Shown here: in pieces, positions 44,097 through 62,008 of the stretch
Layout: each line of letters begins with the position of its first letter
How positions within the stretch are numbered: position 1 is the stretch's first letter
Assembly (NCBI RefSeq): GCF_033060595.1
Contig: NZ_CP133038.1
Location: forward strand, 310,001-374,000
DNA: 64,000 nucleotides
Origin: Pyramidobacter sp. YE332
Lineage (GTDB): Bacteria > Synergistota > Synergistia > Synergistales > Dethiosulfovibrionaceae
Direction: 5' to 3'
The notes under the pieces: model-generated
The model's database searches: none
Seen by the model: only the letters and a program-made list of their open reading frames with translations
What the model was told of the DNA's origin: nothing
Program-made: the position numbers and the translations under genes

Positions 44097-44972
44097 TTAT
44101 TTGGCGATCTTCAGCGCGTGGTTCTTGGCGATCAGGTCGATGAAGACCAGATCCTGATCGTTGTCGTTGCGCAGCGCGTGGCTTTCGCCGGGGCCGGCGA
44201 TGGTGACGGATTTTGGCCCGACTTCGATCTCCTTGCCGTCGCTGCCGGTGAAAACGCCCGTGCCGGCGATGATGATGTAGGTGTCGTCGTTATCGACGTG
44301 CGGATGCATGCCGATGGAAGCCCCCTTCTTCAGGGTCATCCGGCCGATCTCCTTGATGGCCTGATCGTCGGTGGCCTGCTCGCGGCGGAAGGCGAACTTG
44401 CCGTAGAGCACGCCCGTGCCCTTGCCTGCGCCGGCCTTCTCGACGTTCTTGTCGAAAAGGTCTTTCAGCTGGAAACATTGACCGGTGGGGTTCTGCGCGA
44501 TCGCCTCGAGATTGGCGGCGTTGTTCTTGGCGATGATGTCGAGGAAGACGAGGTCTTCCTTGTAAAGGTTGGCGAGGCCGTGAGCCTGTCCCGGGCGGGC
44601 CAGCGTCATGTCGCCGGGGCCGACGACCCAGGCGTTGCCGTTGCCGTCGGTGAAAACGCCCTTGCCGGAGATGATCAGGTAGGCGTCCTCGTTGTCCTTG
44701 TGGGCGTGCAGGCCGATGTAGGCGCCGGGTTTCAGCGTCATCCAGCCGATCTCCTTGATCGCGTCGTCTTCGAGCGCCTGTTCGCGGCGGAAGGCGAACT
44801 CGCCGTGCAGCGTGCCCATGCCGCCGCCGGCTCCTTCCTTGTCGAGGACGAAGAGCTGTTCGGCCGTGTAGCACTGGCCGTGCTTCTGCGGCTTCAGCTC
44901 CACGGCGGCGAAGGCCGCGCCGGCGCCCAGCAGCGCGGCAGCGAGACAGATCCCAGTGAGATACTTCTTCAT
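44097..44972 (-). CDS. Exported double-cupin protein
   Basis: A 291-aa protein with a signal peptide (about 1-22, AFA-A) and two homologous cupin units. They share GQC, FAFRREQA, AIKEIG.MTLK.GA.IG.H.H, a GxGVFT strand and DLVF.D.IAKN. Each unit has a HxH(x)nE-like metal site (HAHKDNEDAY; HPHVDNDDTY) and a distal His (GQAHGL; GESHAL). The start at 44972 has AAAGGAGGAG. It belongs to the gene cluster around the selenoprotein reductase. Likely a metal-binding enzyme or binding protein outside the cytosol; reaction unknown. Confidence 0.8.
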   Translation of the reverse strand: MKKYLTGICLAAALLGAGAAFAAVELKPQKHGQCYTAEQLFVLDKEGAGGGMGTLHGEFAFRREQALEDDAIKEIGWMTLKPGAYIGLHAHKDNEDAYLIISGKGVFTDGNGNAWVVGPGDMTLARPGQAHGLANLYKEDLVFLDIIAKNNAANLEAIAQNPTGQCFQLKDLFDKNVEKAGAGKGTGVLYGKFAFRREQATDDQAIKEIGRMTLKKGASIGMHPHVDNDDTYIIIAGTGVFTGSDGKEIEVGPKSVTIAGPGESHALRNDNDQDLVFIDLIAKNHALKIAK

Positions 44973-45109
44973 CAAAAACTCCTCCTTTGGAAATAAAGAT
45001 AGCGTTAAGCATAAAAAGTATATATTTATTTCCCGAAAAACGCAAGATTTATGACGGCGCGGCGTGGAAAACGGCGTTGCCGATCGGATATTTTGATCGA
45101 CGAAAAGCG

Positions 45110-45730
45110 TCAATCTCCCCTCCGTTCGATCCTCTGCAGGATCTCTTCCCATGTCTTTGCGGACTGAGCGCCTGAGAGCGTGTATTTTCCGTCGATGACA
45201 AATCCGGGCACGTTGCCGTCCATTCCGCAGCGATCGTTCAGCACGGCATTTTCCCGAAGGCGCTCGCCCCACTCCGGAGCTCCCCACGCGACCTCGAGCG
45301 CCTGGGGGCCGAGCCCCGCCGTCATGGCCGCTTCTTCGATCACGGCCTCTTCGGAAATGTTTTTTCCCTCTTCCATATAGGCTCTCCAGATCGCGCGCAG
45401 AAAATTTTCTCCCTTGCCGATGGATTTCGCGTACTCGGCGGCGAGCAGGGCCTTGTGCGTGTTGGAAAAAACGTCCCTGTCGCGGAAACGGACGCCGTAA
45501 GGCGCTCCCATCGCGTTCAGCATGCCGAAGAACTTTTCCGGTTCGGGGACGTGCCAGCTCATGGGCATCCCGCCTTCCGGCGCGTCGGGATGTATTTCCA
45601 TAAAGAGCAGGGTCACGTCAAGATCGTAACGGCCGCGCAGACTGTCCAAAATCCCTTTGGCCAGGTAACACCATTCGCAAATAACGTCAAGGAACATCGT
45701 AACGCGGTGCTTTTTTCCGCTTTCGTTCAT
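45110..45730 (-). CDS. DsbA-family thioredoxin-fold oxidoreductase (FrnE-like)
   Basis: A 206-aa protein with no signal peptide. The active site CEWC (Cys18-Cys21) sits in VTMFLDVICEWCYLAKG. The helical insertion and a C-terminal VPGFVIDGKYTLSGAQSAKTW with the cis-proline match the cytosolic DsbA/FrnE group. Such proteins act as disulfide oxidoreductases or 2-hydroxychromene isomerase-like enzymes. It lies in the minus-strand cluster below the alpha/beta hydrolase and may handle thiol or selenol chemistry for the reductase, which is an inference. Confidence 0.82.
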   Translation of the reverse strand: MNESGKKHRVTMFLDVICEWCYLAKGILDSLRGRYDLDVTLLFMEIHPDAPEGGMPMSWHVPEPEKFFGMLNAMGAPYGVRFRDRDVFSNTHKALLAAEYAKSIGKGENFLRAIWRAYMEEGKNISEEAVIEEAAMTAGLGPQALEVAWGAPEWGERLRENAVLNDRCGMDGNVPGFVIDGKYTLSGAQSAKTWEEILQRIERRGD

Positions 45731-45874: not shown

Positions 45875-46756
45875 TCACTCCTCTTCAAAGAACGCCAGAG
45901 TCCGCTCGCGGAAGGGTCTGTAATAATCCCTTTCCACCCAGAGCGCGTGCCCCGCGCCTTTCATGAAATTGCAGGCGGAACCGTTCGGTAGCTTGTCAAG
46001 GGCTATTTTGACCCGTCCTTCGTCGACGTACGCGTCTTTGTCCCCGAAATGAAGAAGGACGGGGCACGTGACCGTCTCCGGTTCGATCAGCCATTTGTCC
46101 CCTGCAGCCGAGATGTCGCGGTTGCCTCCATTGGGACGTCCGTGACCCGCGTCGTTTTTGAACACCTGTTCGACCCACAGACTCACCAAACCGTGCTCCA
46201 CCGTCGCATAGTCGACTTCCGTATCCGAGCCGTTCACCCTTTGAAACACGCGCACGCAATACGGATAGGAAAGCGTGGTAAAAGGTTCTTTGACCACGGT
46301 CGACGGAAGCGTGCCGCCAAAACAGGGGCCGACCCACGCCATTCTTCGGAACAGTTCGGGACGCATCGCGGAAGCCCGGGCGGAGGTCATGCTTCCCCAA
46401 GACCAGCCAAGGACGTTCAGCTTGTCGGCATGCTGGCGCGCGCAGATTTCCCCGGCGACGGCGACAACGTCCTTCGCCGCGTTCTCCGTGTCCACATCGA
46501 AACCGTTCTCGTATTTGTCCGACAGCCCATAGCCGCCGTAATCCATGCACCAGACGTTATAACCGTTTCGCGCGAAATAGCGCGCCACGCTGTAATCCTT
46601 GTAATCGAGGTCAAATACGTGGTCCGACGACGTCAGCCCATGTACGCAAAGCAGGTTCTTCGCGTCGTAGCTGGCCGGACAGAAGCACCTGTTTACGAAG
46701 ATCTTCTTGCCGTTGTCTTTTCTCCGTACAAAAACGCTTTCAAACGAGAACTCCAT
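45875..46756 (-). CDS. Alpha/beta hydrolase (paralogue 1)
   Basis: A 293-aa alpha/beta-hydrolase with oxyanion region LLCVHGLTSSDHVFD, nucleophile elbow GWSWGS (Ser119), a late acid in LLHFGDKDAYVDEG and the catalytic His in KGAGHALWVERD. It is the same length as the protein encoded at 48995-49876, with the same layout and many shared blocks (KDNGKK, YKDYSV, YENGFDV, HGRPNGGNR). AAGGAGG precedes the ATG at 46756. Its neighbourhood suggests hydrolysis of an ester or amide linked to the reductase pathway. It has no signal peptide. Confidence 0.83.
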   Translation of the reverse strand: MEFSFESVFVRRKDNGKKIFVNRCFCPASYDAKNLLCVHGLTSSDHVFDLDYKDYSVARYFARNGYNVWCMDYGGYGLSDKYENGFDVDTENAAKDVVAVAGEICARQHADKLNVLGWSWGSMTSARASAMRPELFRRMAWVGPCFGGTLPSTVVKEPFTTLSYPYCVRVFQRVNGSDTEVDYATVEHGLVSLWVEQVFKNDAGHGRPNGGNRDISAAGDKWLIEPETVTCPVLLHFGDKDAYVDEGRVKIALDKLPNGSACNFMKGAGHALWVERDYYRPFRERTLAFFEEE

Positions 46757-47271: not shown

Positions 47272-47976
47272 TCACACGCCGTTTCCTGCGTCTTTTTTGC
47301 CGATCCGGCCGGCCATCAGGCTGATCGTAAAATAATGCTCGTCGATCGCTGCGATGCCTGCCGCTTTGTCGTTATGGATGAAGCTTTCGAAGAGTTTCGT
47401 ATGAGCTTCGTGCAGCTGCCGCATGCCCTTTTCGGGCATCGACTCCAGCACCTGCCGCACCCACCGCGAGTACACCTCGGAAATGCTGCTCATGACGATC
47501 GAAAGGATCTGGTTATCCGCCATTTTTACCAGAGCGTAATGGAACTCGTTGTCCCTCCGGATCCGCTCTTCCAGCGGCTGTTTCATAAAGTCGTCCAGTA
47601 TTTCGGAGATCTTGCGCAGCTGGTTGTTTTTGTCGGGGTTGCCGAAAGCCAGATCGAAAACGGCCAATTCCGTGCTCTTGCGGTAGTCCGAAATCTCTTT
47701 CATGTCGATCTTCCGCAGCAGGAGCATCACGTCGAGAGCACGCTTGACGCTGCCGGAAATGCTGCCAGAAATGTAATTTCCCGAACCATGGCGGCTTTCG
47801 ACGACGCCCATGTTCTCGAGAGCGCGTACGCCTTCGCGCACGGAGTTCCGACTGATGCAGAGCTCCGTCGAGATCTGCCGCTCCGAGGGGATCTCGCTCC
47901 CGACGACTGCCCTGCCTTCGCGGATCTCGCCGATGATGTAGTCTATGACTTTTTCGAACTCTCGAAGACAGGTCAT
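47272..47976 (-). CDS. GntR-family regulator with FCD domain (paralogue 1)
   Basis: A 234-aa FadR-subfamily regulator. The N-terminal winged helix contains IPSERQISTELCISRNSVREGVRALENMGVVE (core pattern SERQISxELxxSRxSVREGxRxLExMGxVE) and the wing SRHGSGNYI. The C-terminal all-helical FCD ligand domain has metal/ligand-site residues in RRDNEFHYAL, LHEAHTKLFES and IDEHYF. Acidic-metabolite ligands are usual. Operators of TGGT-N3-ACCA type lie upstream of this gene and of the next transcribed gene, consistent with autoregulation and control of hydrolase 1. Confidence 0.87.
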   Translation of the reverse strand: MTCLREFEKVIDYIIGEIREGRAVVGSEIPSERQISTELCISRNSVREGVRALENMGVVESRHGSGNYISGSISGSVKRALDVMLLLRKIDMKEISDYRKSTELAVFDLAFGNPDKNNQLRKISEILDDFMKQPLEERIRRDNEFHYALVKMADNQILSIVMSSISEVYSRWVRQVLESMPEKGMRQLHEAHTKLFESFIHNDKAAGIAAIDEHYFTISLMAGRIGKKDAGNGV

Positions 47977-48167: not shown

Positions 48168-48908
48168 TCAGACCAACGGCTGCCGCGGACTGCGGACGTT
48201 CAGCATTTCTTCTCCCGCCAATTCTATGAGGTAATAATGTTCGTCGATCGCTTCAAGCCCCGCCGCCTTGTCGTTGTGGAGAAGGCTTTCGTATATTTTC
48301 GTATGGGCGTTGTGCAGGCGGCGCATGCCCCGCTCTGGCATCGCGCCGAGCCCCCGCGTCACCCAGCGTCCGTAGATTTCGAAGATCGCGGACATCAGCA
48401 TCGTCATAACTCCGTTGTCCGTCATTTCGGTCAGCAGATAATGGAACCTCTGATCCAGCCTGATCTGCGTCTCGATATTCTCTTGCGGGAAAGCGCCGAG
48501 GACTTCTTTCATCTCCGCCAGCTCGAGCCTTTTGTTCCGATTGCGGAACGCGAGGTCGTAAACTGCCAGCTCCATGCTCTTTCGAAAAGCGCCGACGTCG
48601 CGCGGCCCGACGATCCCCAGCATCCGCATGACGTCGAACGTGTGGGTGAAGCCGTTCGATACACTTCCGAATATATAGGGTCCCGACCCGGAACGTTTTT
48701 CGACGAGGCAGAGAGTCTCCATCTCGCGAAGGGCCGCGGCGGACTCGTTTTCGGAAACGCCGAGCGCCGCGGCGATCCTGCCGGCGGACGGAAGTTCCTC
48801 TCCGACCTTTATCCGCCCGGCGCGCGCCTGCTCGAAAACGTAATCCAGGATCCGCGCAAAGCGCTCTGGAACGTTTCTTTTCATCTCGGCCGCCGTCAGT
48901 ATCTTCAT
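48168..48908 (-). CDS. GntR-family regulator with FCD domain (paralogue 2)
   Basis: A 246-aa homologue of the regulator at 47272. The FCD half is well conserved (FRKSMELAVYDLAFRN, IRLDQRFHYLLTEM, LHNAHTKIYESLLHNDKAAG, IDEHYYLIEL). The helix-turn-helix is more divergent (LPSAGRIAAALGVSENESAA), so it may bind a different operator. AAAGGAGGATG precedes the ATG at 48908; a longer frame upstream belongs to no gene. It lies directly after hydrolase paralogue 2, separated by a terminator. Confidence 0.85.
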   Translation of the reverse strand: MKILTAAEMKRNVPERFARILDYVFEQARAGRIKVGEELPSAGRIAAALGVSENESAAALREMETLCLVEKRSGSGPYIFGSVSNGFTHTFDVMRMLGIVGPRDVGAFRKSMELAVYDLAFRNRNKRLELAEMKEVLGAFPQENIETQIRLDQRFHYLLTEMTDNGVMTMLMSAIFEIYGRWVTRGLGAMPERGMRRLHNAHTKIYESLLHNDKAAGLEAIDEHYYLIELAGEEMLNVRSPRQPLV

Positions 48909-48994: not shown

Positions 48995-49876
48995 CTACTT
49001 GTTCAGGAAGTCGAGGATCGTCTCCCTGGCCTTCTTGTAGTAATCCTTCTCGAGGTACATGCAGTGGCCGGCGCCGTGCAGGTGAAGAAGCTGAGAACCT
49101 TCTGGCAGTTCCTTGGCCGCTTGGTAGACGCGGTCGATATTCACATAGAAATCGCAGTCTCCGGTAACGATCAGAACGGGGCACGGGACTTTCTTGGTTT
49201 CGACCGACCATTTGTCGCCGCAGCCGAGAATTTCCCTGTTTCCGCCGTTCGGGCGGCCGTGCTTGCCGTCGATCTTGTAGACATGGTCGCACCAAAGTCC
49301 TACGATTTCGGGCTCGACAGTGTCCATGTCGACGTCTTCATCGCTGCCGGGAAGATGCTGGAATACCCGGACGACGTACGGGTACTGCAGGAAAGTAAAC
49401 GGATCCTTGCACTCGGCGGGAGGGAAAGCGCCGCCCAGGAACGGTCCCATCCAGACGATCTTGCTGATATGGGTACTCTTGTCGAGTTCGGCGGCCTTCG
49501 CCGTCGTCATGGTTCCCCAGGACCAGCCGACGACGGGGACCTTCTCGACCTTCTGGAGTTCGCAGATTTTCTCCACAGCGCAGAGGATATCTTTCGCAGC
49601 GTTCTCGGTCGTGACGTCGAAACCATTTTCGTATTCTTCCGAACGTCCGTATCCGCCGAGATCAACGCGCCACACCGTGTAGCCGTTTTTCGCAAAATAT
49701 TCGCAGACGCTGTAATCCTTGTACTTGATGTCAAAAACGTGCTGGGTGTAGGTTAAACCGTGTACGAGCAGTACATTCTTGTCGCCCCAGCTGGCGGGAC
49801 AGTCAAATTTCGTAAAGTACAGTTTCTTGCCATTGTCTTTCCTTGCCAGATCGATCACTTCGCAATTGTACTTCAT
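48995..49876 (-). CDS. Alpha/beta hydrolase (paralogue 2)
   Basis: A 293-aa alpha/beta-hydrolase with VLLVHGLTYTQHVFD, nucleophile elbow GWSWGT (Ser119), acid region VTGDCDFYVNID and GAGHCMYLEKD with the catalytic His. It is a paralogue of the product of 45875-46756. It lies about 155 bp downstream of the selenoprotein gene and is followed by a terminator, so it is probably the last gene of the reductase operon. It has no signal peptide. It may release the substrate reduced by the selenoenzyme. Confidence 0.85.
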   Translation of the reverse strand: MKYNCEVIDLARKDNGKKLYFTKFDCPASWGDKNVLLVHGLTYTQHVFDIKYKDYSVCEYFAKNGYTVWRVDLGGYGRSEEYENGFDVTTENAAKDILCAVEKICELQKVEKVPVVGWSWGTMTTAKAAELDKSTHISKIVWMGPFLGGAFPPAECKDPFTFLQYPYVVRVFQHLPGSDEDVDMDTVEPEIVGLWCDHVYKIDGKHGRPNGGNREILGCGDKWSVETKKVPCPVLIVTGDCDFYVNIDRVYQAAKELPEGSQLLHLHGAGHCMYLEKDYYKKARETILDFLNK

Positions 49877-50030: not shown

Positions 50031-51350
50031 TTACTCCTCGATAAGCGTGTGCTGTCCGGCTTCCGGTTTTTCTTCCAGCATGTCGAGAGCTTTTTCCAGG
50101 CGTTCCTCGCGATATTTGAATTCCTGCTCCTTCGGCAGTTTCGGGTTCCCAAAGACGTGCAGGACGCTGTTGCCCCTGAGGATCCTGTGACTGCCGATCC
50201 CCTTGGAAATTTCCGTCAGGTTTGTCACGTGGATGACCGGGATGCCGGCGCGTTCGATCTCTTTCGTCATCACTGCACCGCAGCGCGAGGACGTGCCTCA
50301 CGTGCTGGTGAGGATGACCGCGTCGACGTTCTGCTTGCGCAGGTCCGCGGCGATCTCGCTGCCGAATTTTTTGCCCATTTCCATCGGCGTCATCACGCCG
50401 GCCGTCGTGTAGTACGAATCCAGCAATTCGCCGATCACGCCTTTTTTCTTGAGATCGAGCGCCGCGTCCACGGGGACGAGGCGGTTTGGGTCGTCCAGCA
50501 CGAAAGCGTTGTTGTAACCCTGGTGGCTGACTTCGTAGTCTTTCGCGTCAAGGCGCGTCACATCACCGATGCTGTATTTGTTGAAGGTCTTGGAGTTGGT
50601 CGGCACCATGCTGTCCGGATTGCCCTTGGGCACGAGGCCCCCGTCCGTGACCAGCGCGAGTTTTATCTCTTTCAGCGGTTTATGCAGCACCGGAAGCGGG
50701 ATCTCCTCGTGATTCGGCATGCGAACTTCCGTCGCGAAGGGGCGGCCGTAATACTTGGCAAGCAGCATATCCACTCCCCTGCTGCTTGCGGGAACGGAAT
50801 AATCGATCTCCACGGCGGGACCGGAGCCATGATAGCCTTCCTTCTTCCCGTCGCCGATTGGGCTCCTCTCCGCAAGCCGTTTGGCGAACGCGGCCAGCTT
50901 GGGAAGCGTTTTCCGCATGTCCGCCGCGCTGTTGTCGGTCTGCAGGATGTAGCAGCGGTCCTTGTAAAGGTCCGTGCCGGGATTTTCGGAGTACAGCGCC
51001 GTCACCGCGGGGAGCTTCATCTTCTCCGTCGCGTAGGCGGCCGAAGCGCCGCAGCCGATCCCGTAACGTCCCGCGTTAAAGCCTGGGCCGGCGATGAACA
51101 GCTGGGCGCCGTACTTTCGGAGCAGCTTGTCGAATTCGGCGAGGACCTCGTCCGTTTTTTCCGCGATCGTGTTGTCGCCGCAAATAATCGTTGCAACGAT
51201 CTTATAATCGTCCCCCAGCTCTTTCTGGAGCCCGAGGCCGGGGCCTGCCGGCCCCTCTTTGACGGAGATGCCGACGCTCGCGGTATCTTCCGCCCCCATG
51301 CCGGCGAAGAACTGATTGATGTAATGTACTACTCTGATCGGTTCAGACAT
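50031..51350 (-). CDS. Component B-type selenoprotein of the glycine/sarcosine/betaine reductase family (Sec351)
   Basis: The frame from ATG 51350 is interrupted by a TGA at 50298-50300 (codon 351) and continues open to TAA at 50031-50033, 439 aa in total. The context TST-U-GTSSRCGAVMTKEIE matches the redox-active selenocysteine site of GrdB/GrdF/GrdH, with Cys357 as the partner; the usual middle cysteine of UxxCxxC is Ser354. Other family blocks are VHYINQFFAGMGAED, FIAGPGFNAGRYGIGCG, VTDGGLVPKGNPD and YEVSHQGYNN. AAAGGAGG precedes the start. It follows the GrdE/G/I-like gene by 20 bp. The substrate is unknown; a simple glycine, sarcosine or betaine role is not shown. Confidence 0.88.
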
Positions 51351-51370
51351 GTTGATTCCTCCTTTCCCGG

Positions 51371-52639
51371 TCATTTGGAGTAGGGAAGGTCCGCGTCCGT
51401 CGTCACGTAACAGTCGCCGAGCTGCGACCAGATCCCCTGATACGCGAAGTTCGTCGTATGCGTGAACGGGCCTCGCGCGTCCACGCCCAGCAGCGAAGGC
51501 ACGTTCGTCCCCTCGCCGATCAGGCGCTCCACGCGCGGGTGATGCAGATCGTAGTTCCGGCCGCTGTTGATGACCGCGTCGATCCTTGGGTCGGCGATGA
51601 CCAGCATGTCGCCCGGCCTGTCGTTGGAAACGGCGCTCAGATTCATCACGCACCGCATGCCCATCTTTTCCTCCCAGTTGAAGGCGAGCGCCTGATCCAG
51701 CTGGCAGTGCCCCATACCGGACTTGTTGACGATGACGCAGTCCGCCTTCAGCGTTTCCTTGCAGAGCGTTGCCGTCATCATGCCCATGGTGTCCTTGCCG
51801 TCGATTTTCATGACGTTGTTGGAGAAGACCACGCCGGCAAAATCAATATCTTTGCCGTGGCGTTCCATCAGTTCCTTGATGTAGATCTCTTCCTGCAGGA
51901 AGTAGTTCGGCTCCCAGTAGCGCCAGATCATCGCTCCGTCCAATATCTCGGTCGGCTGCACGACGATCGGCAGGAAGTTCAGCGCGCTCTGCCCGTACAT
52001 CAGGAAGTTCCAGGTATCGTGCGAAGCCATGTGGACGACGTGGTACGCGACCCGGGGAAGCGGCTTGCCGTCGGGGCCCGGGCCTACCGGACCGAGCTGG
52101 TACGTTTTCGTCTCGTCCGGGGTTTTGCCGATGCCGAGTTTTGCCAGACGGACGTTGAGCGTCAGGGACGCGTATTTCAGCGCTTCCGCATAGCTCAGGT
52201 CGCTGACCCCTTCCGCCGGTTCGGCGTCCAGGATCACGTGGAAGTGGCGCGAAAAGTTCGTGTACCTGGCGCACTCTCCGCCCATGTCAAGATAGTATTT
52301 GACGTTGCACTTGGCGTAGTAAATGTCGGAAACGACCACGCCCTTGAGCGCCACCGTGCGTCCCTCGCCCACGGGGGCGAGTTTCCCCCAAATGCCGGGA
52401 TACGACGTCTCGGGCGCGTCCGCTTTGCACCGGGGCTGCATGACGTCGTGGATGCCGAGGATGCGGCAGTTTTCGCCGGGACGGGCAAGTTTGATGTCCA
52501 GCTTTCCGAACAGCTCGCTGCCCGCCATATCCAGCAGTTCCTGTTTGTCGATGGTCAGAACGCCGTGATCGAGCGCCGTTCGGTCCCCGAACTTCACGTC
52601 TTTAATGTGGATGTAATCAATCTGCAATCTCTTGCTCAT
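51371..52639 (-). CDS. GrdE/GrdG/GrdI-family component B subunit homologue, atypical
   Basis: A 422-aa homologue of the proprotein subunit of glycine/sarcosine/betaine reductase component B. Family-like regions include GENCRILGIHDVMQPRCKAD, LKGVVVSDIYYAKC, TEILDGAMIWRYWEPNY, IKELMERHGKDIDFAGVVFSNN, KADCVIVNKSGMGHCQ and DAVINSGRNYDLHHPRVERL. Known members self-cleave at a cysteine near residue 240 to form a pyruvoyl group. Here no cysteine occurs between residues 124 and 292, and the expected place reads RYWEPNYF. Pyruvoyl formation is therefore doubtful. It is cotranscribed with the selenoprotein gene; the start at 52639 has AAAGGAGAG. Confidence 0.8.
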   Translation of the reverse strand: MSKRLQIDYIHIKDVKFGDRTALDHGVLTIDKQELLDMAGSELFGKLDIKLARPGENCRILGIHDVMQPRCKADAPETSYPGIWGKLAPVGEGRTVALKGVVVSDIYYAKCNVKYYLDMGGECARYTNFSRHFHVILDAEPAEGVSDLSYAEALKYASLTLNVRLAKLGIGKTPDETKTYQLGPVGPGPDGKPLPRVAYHVVHMASHDTWNFLMYGQSALNFLPIVVQPTEILDGAMIWRYWEPNYFLQEEIYIKELMERHGKDIDFAGVVFSNNVMKIDGKDTMGMMTATLCKETLKADCVIVNKSGMGHCQLDQALAFNWEEKMGMRCVMNLSAVSNDRPGDMLVIADPRIDAVINSGRNYDLHHPRVERLIGEGTNVPSLLGVDARGPFTHTTNFAYQGIWSQLGDCYVTTDADLPYSK

Positions 52640-52807
52640 TGATTTCCCTCTCCTTTCCGTTTGCATCGTCGCACAATGTTTCGCCGGAACGCTTTCATAC
52701 GTACATTCTCTATCCGCGCAAAAAAACAGACAATAGGCAAATGACGCCCATGTCTGTTTTCTTTACATATTATTAATCTGTTCAAAAAGCCCCCGACCAC
52801 GCGCCGT
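52640..52807. other. Intergenic region before the reductase genes
   Basis: 168 bp, AT-rich in the middle, between the cysteine-type component-B homologue and the GrdE/G/I-like gene. It could carry a separate promoter for the reductase operon. I see no clear hairpin terminator or SECIS-like element here. Confidence 0.45.
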
Positions 52808-53629
52808 TTAGACGGCGTCCTCGCACAGCCTGCGCAGCGCCGAGCAGACGATCCGCCGGCGGCGGCGGTACTCTTCCGGACGCGAAAGCCCCGCGAAACC
52901 GATCGGGCTTCCCACGCTGGCTCCCTTTTCGACGTGCCGAACGCCTGCGTTCCACGCGATCTCCGTAAGGTTCGCGATCTGCGCGGCCGGGATCCCGCGA
53001 TCTTCCAGCGCCAGTACGATGCAGGCTCCGCACCGCGTGCTGGTCCCGCAGGTCGAAACGACAAGCACGGCGTCGATTGGACAAGCCGACGCGCAGTCGG
53101 CGATTTCCCTCCCTATCCGGCGCGCCGTTTCGGACGGCATCATAACGCCTGTCGTCGATAGAAAACGCGGGTATACGCCGCCGATCGTTCCCTCCCGGCT
53201 CATCTCCCGCAAAATATCCAGCGGAAGCAGGCGGTTCGGGTCTTCGTCGACGTCGCCGTGGTCGTACCCCTGATGGGACACTTCGTATTTGTCCGCTTCG
53301 AACCGCTCCGCCCAGCCGAAGCCATAGGCATGGAACTCTCGCGCGTTGGACGGCGGCAGGCAGTCGGGATTCCCTTTCGGCACCAGCCCCCCGTCCGTGA
53401 CCACCATGATCCGCGCCGCCGCGAGCGGAACGGAAAGAACCGGCGTCACGTGCTCTTCCGGTACGGGCATTTTCACTTCCGAGCAAAACTTTTCCCCGTA
53501 ATACTTGGCGAGCAGCATGTCGAGACAGCGTTTGGGCGCCGGCGTATGGTACGCGATGAACGGGATGACGCTATCCCGCGCCTCGCCCGATTCCTCCGTC
53601 ACAGAATAAATGATTTCCGCCTTGTTCAT
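52808..53629 (-). CDS. Half-length component B homologue with Cys in place of Sec
   Basis: A 273-aa protein matching the C-terminal two thirds of component B from about residue 165 of the selenoprotein. Shared blocks are DMLLAKYYG, VVTDGGLVPKGNPD, YEVSHQGYDHG, DPNRLLPLDIL and the redox site VVSTCGTSTRCGAC, where Cys194 (TGC) replaces selenocysteine and Cys200 is kept. The N-terminal domain is missing, and the upstream DNA encodes a TetR protein whose stop overlaps this start (ATGA), so the short form is genuine. GGGGGAG lies before the ATG. It could be a redox or ligand sensor partner of the regulator, or a cut-down enzyme. Confidence 0.8.
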   Translation of the reverse strand: MNKAEIIYSVTEESGEARDSVIPFIAYHTPAPKRCLDMLLAKYYGEKFCSEVKMPVPEEHVTPVLSVPLAAARIMVVTDGGLVPKGNPDCLPPSNAREFHAYGFGWAERFEADKYEVSHQGYDHGDVDEDPNRLLPLDILREMSREGTIGGVYPRFLSTTGVMMPSETARRIGREIADCASACPIDAVLVVSTCGTSTRCGACIVLALEDRGIPAAQIANLTEIAWNAGVRHVEKGASVGSPIGFAGLSRPEEYRRRRRIVCSALRRLCEDAV

Positions 53630-54249
53630 GACGCCTGTACTCCCCCAATGTTTTTCGTCGCGCCGCTGCGTTTCGATATCTGTTTATTTTCGGACATGAT
53701 GGCGTACATCTCGCTCTGTACGCGGAATATCTCGCTGACTTGCTCGAAATAACTCCTGTAATTGTCGCGCATCCCTGCATGAACCCAGTCCCGCATCAGC
53801 CCCACCAGAGCGTGAGCGTTCATTTTCGCGTAAACGGTGATCTCGTACTCGCTCAGCTTGAACCCGGACGCCGCATACACCATGTCGATGTTGAGTTTCC
53901 ACAGTTCGAAGAAAAAATCCGTCAGATGCTGGTACAACGAATCCTGACCGTCGTATTGCATGCAGGGGTAGTAAAACTTCTTTCTCCGGTACATAAAACC
54001 GCACATGGACACAAACGTTTCGGGGATGCGCATGGGATCGTCGTAATTTTCCACGTTCTTCGCCATGTCGTCGTCCAGGATCCAGTTCATCAGCTCGTAC
54101 TTGTCCTTGAAGTGATAATAGAATGTATTCCGGCTGATGCCGCAGGCTTCGGTGACGTCCTTTACGGGGATCTTCGAAAACTGCCTCTCCAGGAGAAGAC
54201 TCTCCAGCGTCGAAGCGATCGCTTCCTTCGTAATAAGATTTACAGACAT
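53626..54249 (-). CDS. TetR-family transcriptional regulator
   Basis: A 207-aa regulator with an N-terminal TetR helix-turn-helix (TKEAIASTLESLLLERQFSKIPVKDVTEACGISRNTFYYHFKDKYEL, core VTEACGISRNTFYYHFKDK, about 25-45) and a helical C-terminal ligand domain with CMQYDGQDSLYQHLTDFFFE, resembling the DhaS/TetR_C-like group. AAGGAG precedes the ATG at 54249. It is translationally coupled to the half-length component-B homologue and divergent from the LctP-type permease, so it probably controls both directions. Confidence 0.87.
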   Translation of the reverse strand: MSVNLITKEAIASTLESLLLERQFSKIPVKDVTEACGISRNTFYYHFKDKYELMNWILDDDMAKNVENYDDPMRIPETFVSMCGFMYRRKKFYYPCMQYDGQDSLYQHLTDFFFELWKLNIDMVYAASGFKLSEYEITVYAKMNAHALVGLMRDWVHAGMRDNYRSYFEQVSEIFRVQSEMYAIMSENKQISKRSGATKNIGGVQAS

Positions 54250-54639
54250 TTTCCGTCTTCTCCTTCCTGGCCGGTTCGGATCGACGCTGCATATCGTTTC
54301 GGCGCGTTTGGATATCGATATTCCCATGGAAATCACATACTTTTAACAATCTATTACATATATTTTATAGCACACTTTTGGTTTAAAAAAAAAGGGATTC
54401 TCCATTCTCCCACGTTATAATTTGCGCATATCGTGATACTGTACGATTTTTGTGCATTTTTTCGCATGTACGTCGTGGCTGTGTTAAAAATTCATACATT
54501 TCCAGAGTCTGTACGGTTCATATTTTTCCGCAAAAACGTACCATAAGGGGCGACGTCGGAACATCCTTTCATCAAATCTCATCGCGGCCTTTATTCCCTG
54601 CGCTTCCGGGGGGCACAAGGCGAAAGGAGACTTACCCGC
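54250..54639. promoter_or_regulatory. Divergent regulatory region between tetR and the lctP-type gene
   Basis: 390 bp, AT-rich, without a gene. TGTACG occurs three times on the plus strand (54440-54445, 54467-54472, 54510-54515), with a related ACGTACC near 54536; these are candidate TetR-binding elements. AT-rich stretches near 54360-54390 suit promoters. Assignments are tentative. Confidence 0.4.
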
Positions 54640-56361
54640 ATGTATGCATTGATTGCCGCCGTACCGATCTTGCTCACTATCGTCTTCATGGTCTTTCTGA
54701 ACTGGTCCGCCAAACGGTCGCTGGTTATTTCATGGCTCGCGGCTTTTGCCGTCGCGTGCTCCGTCTGGGGCATGGGGATCGGAGAAGCCGCCGCCCGAAC
54801 GGTCGCTGGCTTCCTGGCTTCTTTCGAAACAAGCGCCATCATTTTCGGGGCAATCCTGCTGATGAACGTGCTCAAGCAGTCGGGCGCCATGGCTTCCATC
54901 AACGGAATGTTCTCCGGCATCACCGAAGACGCGCGTCTTCAGGCTATCATCGTTGGCTACTGCTTCGCCGGATTTATCGAGGGAGCGGCGGGGTTCGGCA
55001 CGCCGGCCGCCTTGGGCGCGCCAATTCTGATCAGCCTGGGGTTTCCTCCTCTCGCCGCGGCGGCGATCTGCCTCGTCTGCAACTCGACGCCTGTCAACCC
55101 CGGCCCCGTCGGCGTGCCGCTGCTCACGGCTTCCAAAGTCGTTGCGGACGCGGTAAAACATCTCGGCGGCGATCCCGAAAAATTCACGACGGTGCTGACG
55201 CGCTGGGTCTGCATCCCGAACATGATCGGCGGTCTGTTTATCATCATGGCCATCGTCTTCATGATGTGTAAGGTGTTCGGGAAGAACCGTTCGTTCAGGG
55301 ACGCCGTCCCTGCCGTTCCGTTTTGCCTACTCACCGGCGTCGTCGTCGGCTCGATCTACATCGTCATGTCGTTCTTCGCCGCTCCCGAATTGATTTCCAT
55401 GACGGCTTTCCTCGGCGGCATGATCGTGATGATGTTCTGCGCGAAAAAAGGCGTCTGCGTTCCCAAAAAGGTCTGGACCTTTGACGGCTACAAAGAATGG
55501 GGTGAGTTCTCCTGGCAGTCCACCACAGTCGTCACATCCGTTAAGGACAAGGGCATGAAACCGCTTCTGGCCTGGGGGCCCTATATCGTCATCGGCGTTA
55601 TCCTGGTGCTGACGAGACTGAACGCTTTCGGCCTCAAAACCCTTTTTAACAATGATCCGTTCATCCTGCGCGTCGGGAATATCCTCGGCTTCGAGGAAAT
55701 CGGCTGGAACTTCAAGTTCCTGTACAACCCCGGCATCATGCCCTTCGTCCTCGTCGCAATCCTGACGGTCCCGCTGCACCGCATGTCGCGGGAAGAGGCC
55801 AAAATCGCCGTCGCAGATTCCGTGAAAAACTGGTCCGGCGCGGCCACAGCCTTGCTGTTCGGCGTCGCCATGGTCAACCTGTACCGCTACACGTCGAGCG
55901 CGCCAATCGGAGCAGCCATTGCCGGAGTCGCGGCGGACGCGGAGTTTACGTTCAAGAACAGCTCGATGCTCTACGTCATGGCCGACGCACTGGCGAAGCT
56001 CTTCCAGGGGACTTACTTCATTATCGCCCCGCTCATCGGCGTTCTCGGAGCGTTCATGTCGGGTTCCTGCACGGTGTCAAACACGCTGTTCGCTTCGTTG
56101 CAGTTCGAGACCGCGACCCTCGTCGGCTTGTCCCAGGTCCTCATCGTGGCGCTCCAGACCATGGGCGGCGGCATCGGCAACATGATCTGCGTCAACAACA
56201 TCGTCGCAGTCTGCGCCACCACTGGCACGAACGGCAACGAAGGCAAGCTGATCCGCACGAACATCTTTCCCTGCCTGATCTATGCCGCCGTCGTCGCAAC
56301 GGTCGTCGGGCTGCTACTGGCCGCCGGCGTCGATCCGATGCCGGAACTGCTGGCAAAATAA
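54640..56361 (+). CDS. L-lactate permease (LctP) family transporter
   Basis: A 573-aa membrane protein with about 13 helices. The family signature FIEGAAGFGTPAALGAP (about 108-124) and GFPPLAAAAICLVCNSTPV follow the usual LctP order; TGTNGNEGKLIRTNI near the C-terminus is also typical. Members take up lactate or glycolate with protons. AAAGGAG precedes the ATG. Its divergent position opposite the TetR/component-B genes suggests it moves a 2-hydroxy- or other small acid that feeds or leaves the reductase pathway. Confidence 0.87.
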   Translation: MYALIAAVPILLTIVFMVFLNWSAKRSLVISWLAAFAVACSVWGMGIGEAAARTVAGFLASFETSAIIFGAILLMNVLKQSGAMASINGMFSGITEDARLQAIIVGYCFAGFIEGAAGFGTPAALGAPILISLGFPPLAAAAICLVCNSTPVNPGPVGVPLLTASKVVADAVKHLGGDPEKFTTVLTRWVCIPNMIGGLFIIMAIVFMMCKVFGKNRSFRDAVPAVPFCLLTGVVVGSIYIVMSFFAAPELISMTAFLGGMIVMMFCAKKGVCVPKKVWTFDGYKEWGEFSWQSTTVVTSVKDKGMKPLLAWGPYIVIGVILVLTRLNAFGLKTLFNNDPFILRVGNILGFEEIGWNFKFLYNPGIMPFVLVAILTVPLHRMSREEAKIAVADSVKNWSGAATALLFGVAMVNLYRYTSSAPIGAAIAGVAADAEFTFKNSSMLYVMADALAKLFQGTYFIIAPLIGVLGAFMSGSCTVSNTLFASLQFETATLVGLSQVLIVALQTMGGGIGNMICVNNIVAVCATTGTNGNEGKLIRTNIFPCLIYAAVVATVVGLLLAAGVDPMPELLAK

Positions 56362-61722: not shown

Positions 61723-61794
61723 CGTCCGCTGCCGGGGCCTCGATCAGAAAGAAAGGTCTGAAGCAGCACACACGTTCCGTCGCTCGCGAAAACT

Positions 61795-61975
61795 TTTTTG
61801 TGCTCAGCGCGGCAAGTCTTCTGGCTCAAGCCCATGGAGCCTTCTCCGCCTTCCCATGAGCGCGAAGCTCACAGTGGCGCGTGGAGAAGCGGGGGCTTTT
61901 ACAGCGGCGGGACCGCTCGGGATTCTCACCCGATTCCTTTTTGATCGAGGCGCAACGCCTCGAACCGTGCTGATT
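61795..61975 (-). ncRNA. Cobalamin (B12) riboswitch
   Basis: Reading the minus strand, the class hallmarks occur in order: CACGGTT at the 5' end, GGGTGAGAATCCCGAGCGG, CCCGCCGCTGTAA, GCCACTG, CATGGGAAGG and the 3' AGCCAGAAGACTTGCC. A TATAAT lies at 61999-62004, just upstream. The downstream gene is the CoA-transferase, so B12 would lower its expression through the terminator at 61688. Confidence 0.93.
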
Positions 61976-62008
61976 ATTCGATTGGGTTTCTGAGACAGAT
62001 TATAGCAG

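What the first reader, a model, noticed from the sequence alone, without database searches (positions are those of the whole stretch)
50031..52639. Divergent selenoprotein reductase operon of unknown substrate
A component-B-like selenoprotein (Sec351, UGTSSRC) and a GrdE/G/I-like partner are encoded together with an alpha/beta hydrolase, without GrdA, GrdC or GrdD in the window. The redox site lacks the middle cysteine (Ser354) of the UxxCxxC motif I associate with GrdB. Double cupin, DsbA-like, hydrolase and LctP-type genes around it suggest a dedicated catabolic route for a compound other than glycine.
Basis: partly seen in the sequence, partly recalled or inferred. Interest (0 to 1): 0.85.

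Follow-up and report, generated by a model that had tools for sequence, protein, structure and literature searches.

The report
Fluoroacetate reductase with a candidate sensor
This rumen bacterium carries the already described selenium enzyme thought to strip fluorine from the plant poison fluoroacetate, and beside it sits a half-copy of that enzyme paired with a gene switch, which may let the cell sense the poison.

Summary
In detail: an in-frame UGA selenoprotein (U351-G-T-S354-S-R-C) and a GrdE-like partner lie on the minus strand at 50034-52639. The substrate is not unknown. The partner scores 935.5 bits (cut-off 675) against NCBIfam FarE, fluoroacetate reductase, and Leong 2023 described farACEB, with a figure legend naming alpha/beta hydrolase, fadR and acrR in the Cloacibacillus/Pyramidobacter clusters. 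GrdA, GrdC and GrdD lie elsewhere in the genome. Ser354 is in 27 of 27 FarB read, though also in 1 of 14 other GrdB rows. What I did not find in print: a Cys-containing C-terminal half of FarB ("halfB") in 20 of 29 far loci, each of them with a DhaS-like TetR gene, fused to it in one, and in the cut list for 185 Synergistota genomes seen only at far loci. I propose that halfB is a pseudoenzyme co-sensor (about 0.45). Far loci also occur in Lachnospiraceae, Clostridium, Olsenella and others, so fluoroacetate may not be the usual substrate.

The parts
50034..51350 (-). farB: GrdB-like selenoprotein, 439 aa, Sec351, motif UGTSSRC (stop 50031-50033)
50298..50300 (-). UGA (Sec) codon of farB
50271..50285 (-). 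SECIS-like hairpin CGCTGC-GGT-GCAGTG, consensus of 25 stacked FarB genes; no shuffle control
51374..52639 (-). farE: fluoroacetate reductase subunit FarE, 422 aa
   Evidence: NF053623 935.5 bits, cut-off 675
52811..53629 (-). halfB: C-terminal half of a FarB-type protein with Cys in place of Sec (CGTSTRCG), 273 aa; proposed co-sensor
53629..54249 (-). TetR-family regulator of the DhaS type; its stop codon overlaps the start codon of halfB (ATGA)
52723..52760 (-). inverted repeat with T run between halfB and farE, terminator-like
54450..54473 (+). degenerate candidate operator (3 mismatches) in the tetR-lctP gap
   Evidence: suggestive only
54640..56358 (+). LctP-family permease (Pfam L-lactate permease 320.6 bits; under the NCBIfam lctP cut-off, 318 against 341), divergent from tetR; candidate uptake of fluoroacetate or another small carboxylate
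48998..49876 (-). alpha/beta hydrolase A, GWSWG motif; fits 'bioH' of Leong Fig. 3d legend
48171..48908 (-). GntR/FCD-type regulator a
47275..47976 (-). GntR/FCD-type regulator b
45878..46756 (-). alpha/beta hydrolase B, 51% identical to A
45113..45730 (-). DsbA-like protein; a relative lies in the genome's second far locus (41% identity)
44100..45287 (-). double cupin protein (true start probably further in)

Best explanation
FarE and FarB form the substrate-specific component B of a glycine-reductase-type system that takes fluoroacetate. FarE/FarB bind the substrate and Sec351 displaces fluoride, giving a carboxymethyl-selenoether that passes to GrdA (one found in the genome) and then to GrdC/GrdD, which make acetyl phosphate (chemistry inferred from Leong 2023 and the known glycine reductase; the presence of the parts is shown here). 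LctP, in place of the FarA antiporter, probably imports the acid (inferred). The neighbouring tetR-halfB pair is, on present evidence, the switch: halfB is a disarmed FarB half (Cys for Sec, no N-terminal domain) that binds or is alkylated by the substrate and tells the DhaS-like TetR to turn on the far genes (inferred, about 0.45). The confidence given is for the enzyme identity.
For: Enzyme: FarE model 935.5 against 675 bits; in 185 Synergistota genomes there are 9 FarE-type loci at 669-937 bits, and the next match listed is at 221 bits. Pyramidobacter C12-8 carries an identical FarE (100%) and a 99.8% identical FarB, and no second FarE-type locus in the listing; the paper on it, seen by title only in the reference list, calls it a Pyramidobacter that degrades fluoroacetate. 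Leong 2023: far genes up about 5,000-fold with fluoroacetate in Cloacibacillus porcorum, degradation by three species, FarB lacking CxxC, bioH, fadR and acrR in the Cloacibacillus/Pyramidobacter clusters. GrdA with in-frame UGA, GrdC and GrdD over cut-offs, SelB and tRNA-Sec. Sensor: TetR is present in 20 of 20 halfB loci (one cut by a contig end), directly upstream on the same strand in 18 of 20, of which 13 can overlap and one is a single fused 525-aa gene. halfB is under purifying selection between two Pyramidobacter loci (dN/dS 0.14), falls with FarB and not with GrdB (100/99), and keeps 11 of 25 FarB-specific invariant residues in at least 90% of copies. TetR's best solved relatives are DhaS-type regulators.
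Against: No biochemistry on this strain. FarB here keeps the last Cys (UGTSSRC), whereas the two Cloacibacillus-like loci (L057, L058) and this genome's second copy read UGTSSRG, so it belongs to another sub-clade than the FarB of the organism where induction was measured. FarA and the radical-SAM FarC are absent from the window locus. Sensor: 3 loci have TetR without halfB (L066, L079, and L086 where it lies over 7 kb away) and 6 have neither, some of them cut by contig ends; in 2 of 20 the genes are apart. 14 of 25 FarB-specific residues are not kept at 90%. The tree tool warned that long branches, some of them halfB, meet. No binding data.
Confidence: 0.8

Rival explanations
1. FarEB acts on fluoroacetate, but its usual substrate is another small acid X-CH2-COO- (another halo-acid, or one released by the neighbouring hydrolases or amidohydrolases).
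For: Far loci occur in genomes such as Faecalimonas, Dorea, Catonella, Hespellia and Olsenella, gut or mouth bacteria (habitats recalled) where fluoroacetate is not an obvious diet component. Some loci carry an M20-type amidohydrolase (6 loci, one scanned) or alpha/beta hydrolases nearby. Leong themselves suggest that the preferred substrate may be another, amine-containing compound.
Against: The 5,000-fold induction by fluoroacetate, with no high up-regulation by glycine, in Cloacibacillus. Transporters at far loci include carboxylate families (LctP in 12, a FarA-like MFS in 6, of 29, no locus with both). The hydrolases are not conserved across loci.
Confidence: 0.4
2. halfB is not a sensor but a redox partner that supplies the cysteines FarB lacks.
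For: halfB has a Cys at the Sec position and a second one six positions on in 20 of 20 copies, while FarB has lost the middle Cys. In L077 halfB follows farB directly on the same strand.
Against: FarBs in genomes where no halfB was listed have the same motifs (L059, L066, L078, L079, L082 UGTSSRC; L080, L086 UGTSSRG), so halfB is not needed to complement them. The tetR-halfB pair lies upstream, downstream, divergent or convergent to farEB and is fused in L050.
Confidence: 0.15
3. A canonical sarcosine, betaine, glycine or proline reductase paralogue.
For: Overall similarity; GrdF is the best model for FarB (444.8 bits).
Against: Below the curated cut-offs of those models; motif UGTS not UGTC (but 1 of 14 other GrdB rows, L100, also has Ser there); separate from the 14 Synergistota GrdB rows used with 100/99 support. 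No characterised GrdF or GrdH sequence was in the tree.
Confidence: 0.03

Closest known systems
farACEB fluoroacetate reductase of Cloacibacillus porcorum MFA1 (Leong 2023, PMC10838667)
   Same: FarE and FarB relatives (FarE 76-77% identical to L057 and L058, which fit the published Cloacibacillus operons), Sec at the same site, missing middle Cys; bioH, fadR and acrR named in its Fig. 3d legend
   Different: LctP instead of FarA, no FarC, UGTSSRC instead of UGTSSRG; the text I read (parts 1, 2 and 4 of 4) does not discuss a half-length Cys paralogue or a role for the acrR gene (figures and supplements not held)
Glycine/sarcosine/betaine reductase component B (GrdB/E, GrdF/G, GrdH/I)
   Same: two-subunit selenoprotein component B; GrdA, GrdC and GrdD in the genome
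   Different: below the curated cut-offs, Ser in place of the middle Cys of UxxCxxC
DhaS/DhaQ regulation of the dha operon in Lactococcus (DhaQ recalled; DhaS named)
   Same: a TetR of the same sub-family next to a paralogue of the enzyme it would control
   Different: the enzyme family is another one; TetR scores 106.8 bits against the DhaS cut-off of 129; interaction untested
D-proline reductase PrdB
   Same: small GrdB-like protein of similar length to halfB (model length 238)
   Different: halfB scores 73.9 against 300 bits, has Cys, and groups with FarB (no PrdB in that tree)

Membership tests
FarE (NF053623) | score above curated cut-off over the full model | tested here: met
   935.5 against 675 bits, 1-419/419
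far (fluoroacetate reductase) cluster | farE and farB adjacent, farB with in-frame UGA | tested here: met
far (fluoroacetate reductase) cluster | farB lacks CxxC after Sec | tested here: inconclusive
   first Cys replaced by Ser, second kept: UGTSSRC
far (fluoroacetate reductase) cluster | farA antiporter and farC radical SAM protein in the operon | tested here: not met
   absent at the window locus; also reported missing in P. piscolens. A FarA-like MFS gene is at the genome's second far locus
far (fluoroacetate reductase) cluster | reduces fluoroacetate to acetate and fluoride | not testable with these tools
   needs enzyme or strain assays
GrdB / GrdF / GrdH | curated cut-offs 602.2 / 800 / 775 bits | tested here: not met
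   381.1 / 444.8 / 381.2
GrdB / GrdF / GrdH | UxxCxxC motif | tested here: not met
   UGTSSRC
PrdB | cut-off 300 bits | tested here: not met
   FarB 82.5, halfB 73.9
DhaS regulator (TIGR02366) | score above cut-off 129 | tested here: not met
   106.8, although DhaS-type chains are the best solved relatives
DhaQ-like pseudoenzyme co-regulator | paralogue of the regulated enzyme encoded with the TetR (definition recalled) | tested here: met
DhaQ-like pseudoenzyme co-regulator | physical complex with the TetR and ligand-dependent activation | not testable with these tools
   not measured

The most novel reading that the evidence does not exclude
The far system is switched on by a two-protein chemical sensor: a disarmed FarB half, with Cys in place of Sec, that is covalently alkylated by or binds fluoroacetate, and a DhaS-type TetR that reads this and activates farEB. 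An enzyme half-copy has thus been turned into a substrate sensor, in one locus fused to the regulator, and the cassette has spread with farEB among Synergistota, Bacillota and a MAG labelled Deltaproteobacteria.
Probability: 0.45. Interest if true: 0.75.

Novelty: new member of a known kind. Interest (0 to 1): 0.5.

Why it matters
It places a gene cluster flagged as a mystery into a published biological route for anaerobic cleavage of the C-F bond of fluoroacetate, a livestock poison. It shows that the route is encoded well outside Synergistota. It also offers a concrete, testable control mechanism for a published 5,000-fold induction. If halfB is the sensor, it could serve as a biosensor part for haloacetates and as a clean case of an enzyme turned regulator.

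Tried and rejected
Two family scans failed for a wrong frame of the cupin gene, repeated. A joint alignment of TetR, halfB and the fused protein misplaced the TetR rows and was not used. A first translation for GrdA was in the wrong frame, repeated. Structure: halfB model pLDDT 85, FarB 84. halfB found no solved match at E 0.001 or better; no sequence relative of FarB with a solved structure at 0.001; for FarB the fold rows cover mainly residues 1-176 with LacI/periplasmic-binding-like folds, Z up to 10.8. Neither settled function, and the C-terminal half is untested rather than new. Hydrolases as fluoroacetate dehalogenases: rejected, because both show a GWSWG serine motif whereas those enzymes use Asp (recalled). 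Operator search: three exact TTGTGCAT-N10-ATGCACAA copies in L077 between tetR and farE (none in 200 shuffles), weaker ones in L076, L065, L056 and the window, nothing at 4 mismatches or fewer in 9 of 19 gaps scanned, so it stays suggestive. Half-copy as decaying remnant: rejected by dN/dS 0.14 and by conservation across phyla. Literature: eight searches; I saw no paper that describes a half GrdB with TetR, but only listings and the papers named in the report were looked at; figures and supplements were not held, and papers outside the library were not searched. Read: PMC10838667 parts 1, 2 and 4 of 4; PMC11008178 whole; PMC12366334 abstract and passages; PMC13188914 passages. One gntRa comparison was out of frame and is disregarded; the gntRb and abhB values there rest on very low dS and are not used.

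Rows dropped or partial: L055 and L064 (same-species copies of the window locus) from the locus set; L081 is the same record as L061. L061 and L070 (FarB cut by contig ends) left out of the FarB counts, so 27 of 29. One halfB (L065) has CATSTRCG and one (L058) CGTSSRCG instead of CGTSTRCG; all 20 have Cys at the Sec position and Ser in the middle. L078 left out because its FarB matches in two pieces. GrdB rows: 12 of 23 fetched loci (my script read one strand only) plus 2 of this genome; the genome's third GrdB was missed for the same reason and read. 25 of 27 FarB (near copies left out). One search lists matches at 1e-70 or better and cuts the list.

Full report
What is there. On the minus strand at 50034-52639 the window encodes a GrdE-like protein (51374-52639, 422 aa) followed by a GrdB-like selenoprotein (50034-51350, 439 aa) with one in-frame UGA at residue 351 and the motif TSTUGTSSRCGA. 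A hairpin 15 nt after the first base of UGA is the consensus structure of 25 stacked FarB genes; it is not the lowest-energy fold of every row, no shuffle control was run, and the same bases code for a conserved peptide.

Which genome. The window lies in a 2,795,328-base genome of two contigs, the exact size and contig number published for Pyramidobacter sp. YE332 from a cattle rumen fermentation (PMC11008178, whole text read). C12-8 is described by the title of its paper as a Pyramidobacter that degrades fluoroacetate (title seen in the reference list; paper not read).

What it is. The GrdE-like protein scores 935.5 bits against NCBIfam NF053623, fluoroacetate reductase subunit FarE, cut-off 675, over the full model. 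In 185 Synergistota genomes there are 9 loci in 8 genomes at 669-937 bits, 7 genomes over the cut-off, and the next match is at 221 bits. The selenoprotein is under the cut-offs for GrdB, GrdF, GrdH and PrdB. Leong 2023 (PMC10838667; parts 1, 2 and 4 of 4 read, passages) described farACEB in Cloacibacillus porcorum MFA1: induced about 5,000-fold by fluoroacetate, a FarB lacking CxxC, and similar operons in C. evryensis and P. piscolens, the latter without farA and farC. The legend of its Fig. 3d names alpha-beta hydrolase (bioH), fadR, acrR and hutI among other genes in Cloacibacillus and Pyramidobacter clusters; the first three fit the hydrolase, GntR/FCD and TetR genes of this window. The figure itself is not held.

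Parts elsewhere in the genome. GrdA with an in-frame UGA lies near 413 kb; GrdC and GrdD, both over their equivalog cut-offs (709.9 and 561.8 bits), lie near 1.16 Mb. SelB and tRNA-Sec are present. Three canonical GrdBs read UGTCTRC, UGSCTRC and UGTCTRC. So component B of the window can feed the shared A and C components. A second far locus lies at 2.65 Mb (FarE 869.5 bits) with an MFS transporter of the FarA kind and a FarB of the UGTSSRG type. The listing for C12-8 shows only the window type.

Spread. A named scan of one genome per species found 23 loci, among them Lachnospiraceae, Dorea, Faecalimonas umbilicata, Hespellia stercorisuis, Catonella morbi, Clostridium, Olsenella and a MAG labelled Deltaproteobacteria. 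All 27 FarB sequences that could be read have Sec and have Ser where canonical GrdB has the middle Cys; 20 keep the last Cys and 7 have Gly there. Ser is not exclusive to FarB: 1 of 14 other GrdB rows (L100) has it too. FarB is one group (100/99), separate from the Synergistota GrdB rows used. Of 29 loci, LctP lies in 12 and a FarA-like MFS in 6, with no locus holding both.

The extra part. At 52811-53629 lies a 273-residue protein that is only the C-terminal half of this family, with Cys in the Sec position: CGTSTRCG. I call it halfB. Of 29 far loci compared, 20 have it, and all 20 also have a TetR gene (one cut by a contig end); 3 have TetR without it (one of them over 7 kb away) and 6 have neither, some cut by contig ends (Fisher p about 0.0002, ignoring kinship). 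In 18 of 20 TetR lies directly upstream on the same strand: taking the upstream-most start, 13 overlap, 4 are 85-108 nt apart, and in the genome's second far locus the two are one 525-residue gene. In the other two (L072, L077) they are apart. The pair is found upstream, downstream, divergent or convergent to farEB, as a regulator cassette would be. In the list for 185 Synergistota genomes, cut at 1e-70 and by length, the stop-free half copies number 7, all at far loci. In 19 far-bearing genomes outside, 13 have exactly one, at the far locus, and 6 have none. Selection is purifying (dN/dS 0.14 between two Pyramidobacter loci). In the tree halfB and FarB together separate from GrdB (100/99); with GrdB as outgroup halfB is not one clade, its branches are long, and the tool warns of long branches that meet. 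Of 25 FarB-invariant residues that GrdB lacks, halfB keeps 11 in at least 90% of copies; of 45 shared with GrdB it keeps 36. Shared ancestry alone could give this.

Mechanism proposed for the pair. The TetR's best solved relatives are a probable dihydroxyacetone kinase regulator (4mk6) and DhaS (2iu5), and its best NCBIfam family is DhaS, under the cut-off. In Lactococcus, DhaS works with DhaQ, a paralogue of the kinase it regulates (recalled; the library searches gave nothing usable). The arrangement here is the same in outline: a TetR of that sub-family beside a disarmed paralogue of the enzyme. I infer that halfB binds the haloacid, perhaps through alkylation of its Cys, and that this complex switches far expression. 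A terminator-like repeat between halfB and farE in the window fits two transcription units. TTGTGCAT-N8-10-ATGCACAA-like sites fit an operator in some loci only. Against: far loci without halfB exist, and nothing shows binding. A redox-partner role for halfB is the main rival; it is weakened because FarBs in genomes without a listed halfB carry the same motifs.

Flanking hydrolases. The two alpha/beta hydrolases of the window are 51% identical and carry GWSWG; each is 98-100% identical to its counterpart in the closest Pyramidobacter loci; other loci have other hydrolases or amidohydrolases. They may release a substrate from a precursor; this is a guess.

Verdict. The enzyme finding is ordinary in the sense that it is published: a far cluster in Pyramidobacter. 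What would be new is the halfB-TetR cassette as a sensor and the wide spread outside Synergistota. I found neither in print in the searches, which cover only an open-licence library, without figures or supplements.

Noticed in passing
L050:8412-9986 (genome C1 about 2,651,400-2,653,000): Single 525-aa gene fusing the TetR and halfB, at the genome's second far locus.
   Followed up: yes
L050:10803-14698: Second farE and farB of this genome with an MFS transporter; FarB motif UGTSSRG as in the Cloacibacillus-like loci; no such second locus listed for C12-8.
   Followed up: partly
L077:8671-8800: Three exact copies of TTGTGCAT-N10-ATGCACAA between tetR and farE in a MAG labelled Deltaproteobacteria (none in 200 shuffles).
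   Followed up: partly
window 61794-61984 (-): Cobalamin riboswitch, 110.9 bits.
   Followed up: no
L052, genome C1 about 2,112,845-2,114,139: The grdE beside the third canonical grdB reads in two different frames; may be a broken gene or a sequencing slip.
   Followed up: no
L100 (G182): A GrdB row that is not FarB and has one in-frame TGA also has Ser at the middle Cys of the motif.
   Followed up: no
L059, L079: Far loci of a Synergistota genome and a Clostridiales MAG share a TRAP-type transporter (DctM, scanned in L059) and several other neighbours and have neither LctP nor the FarA-like MFS.
   Followed up: partly
L067, L068, L069, L074, L086: A lipase/esterase-like gene (scanned in L068) beside an unknown 138-aa gene recurs near far loci, twice in tandem in L067, L068 and L069.
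   Followed up: partly
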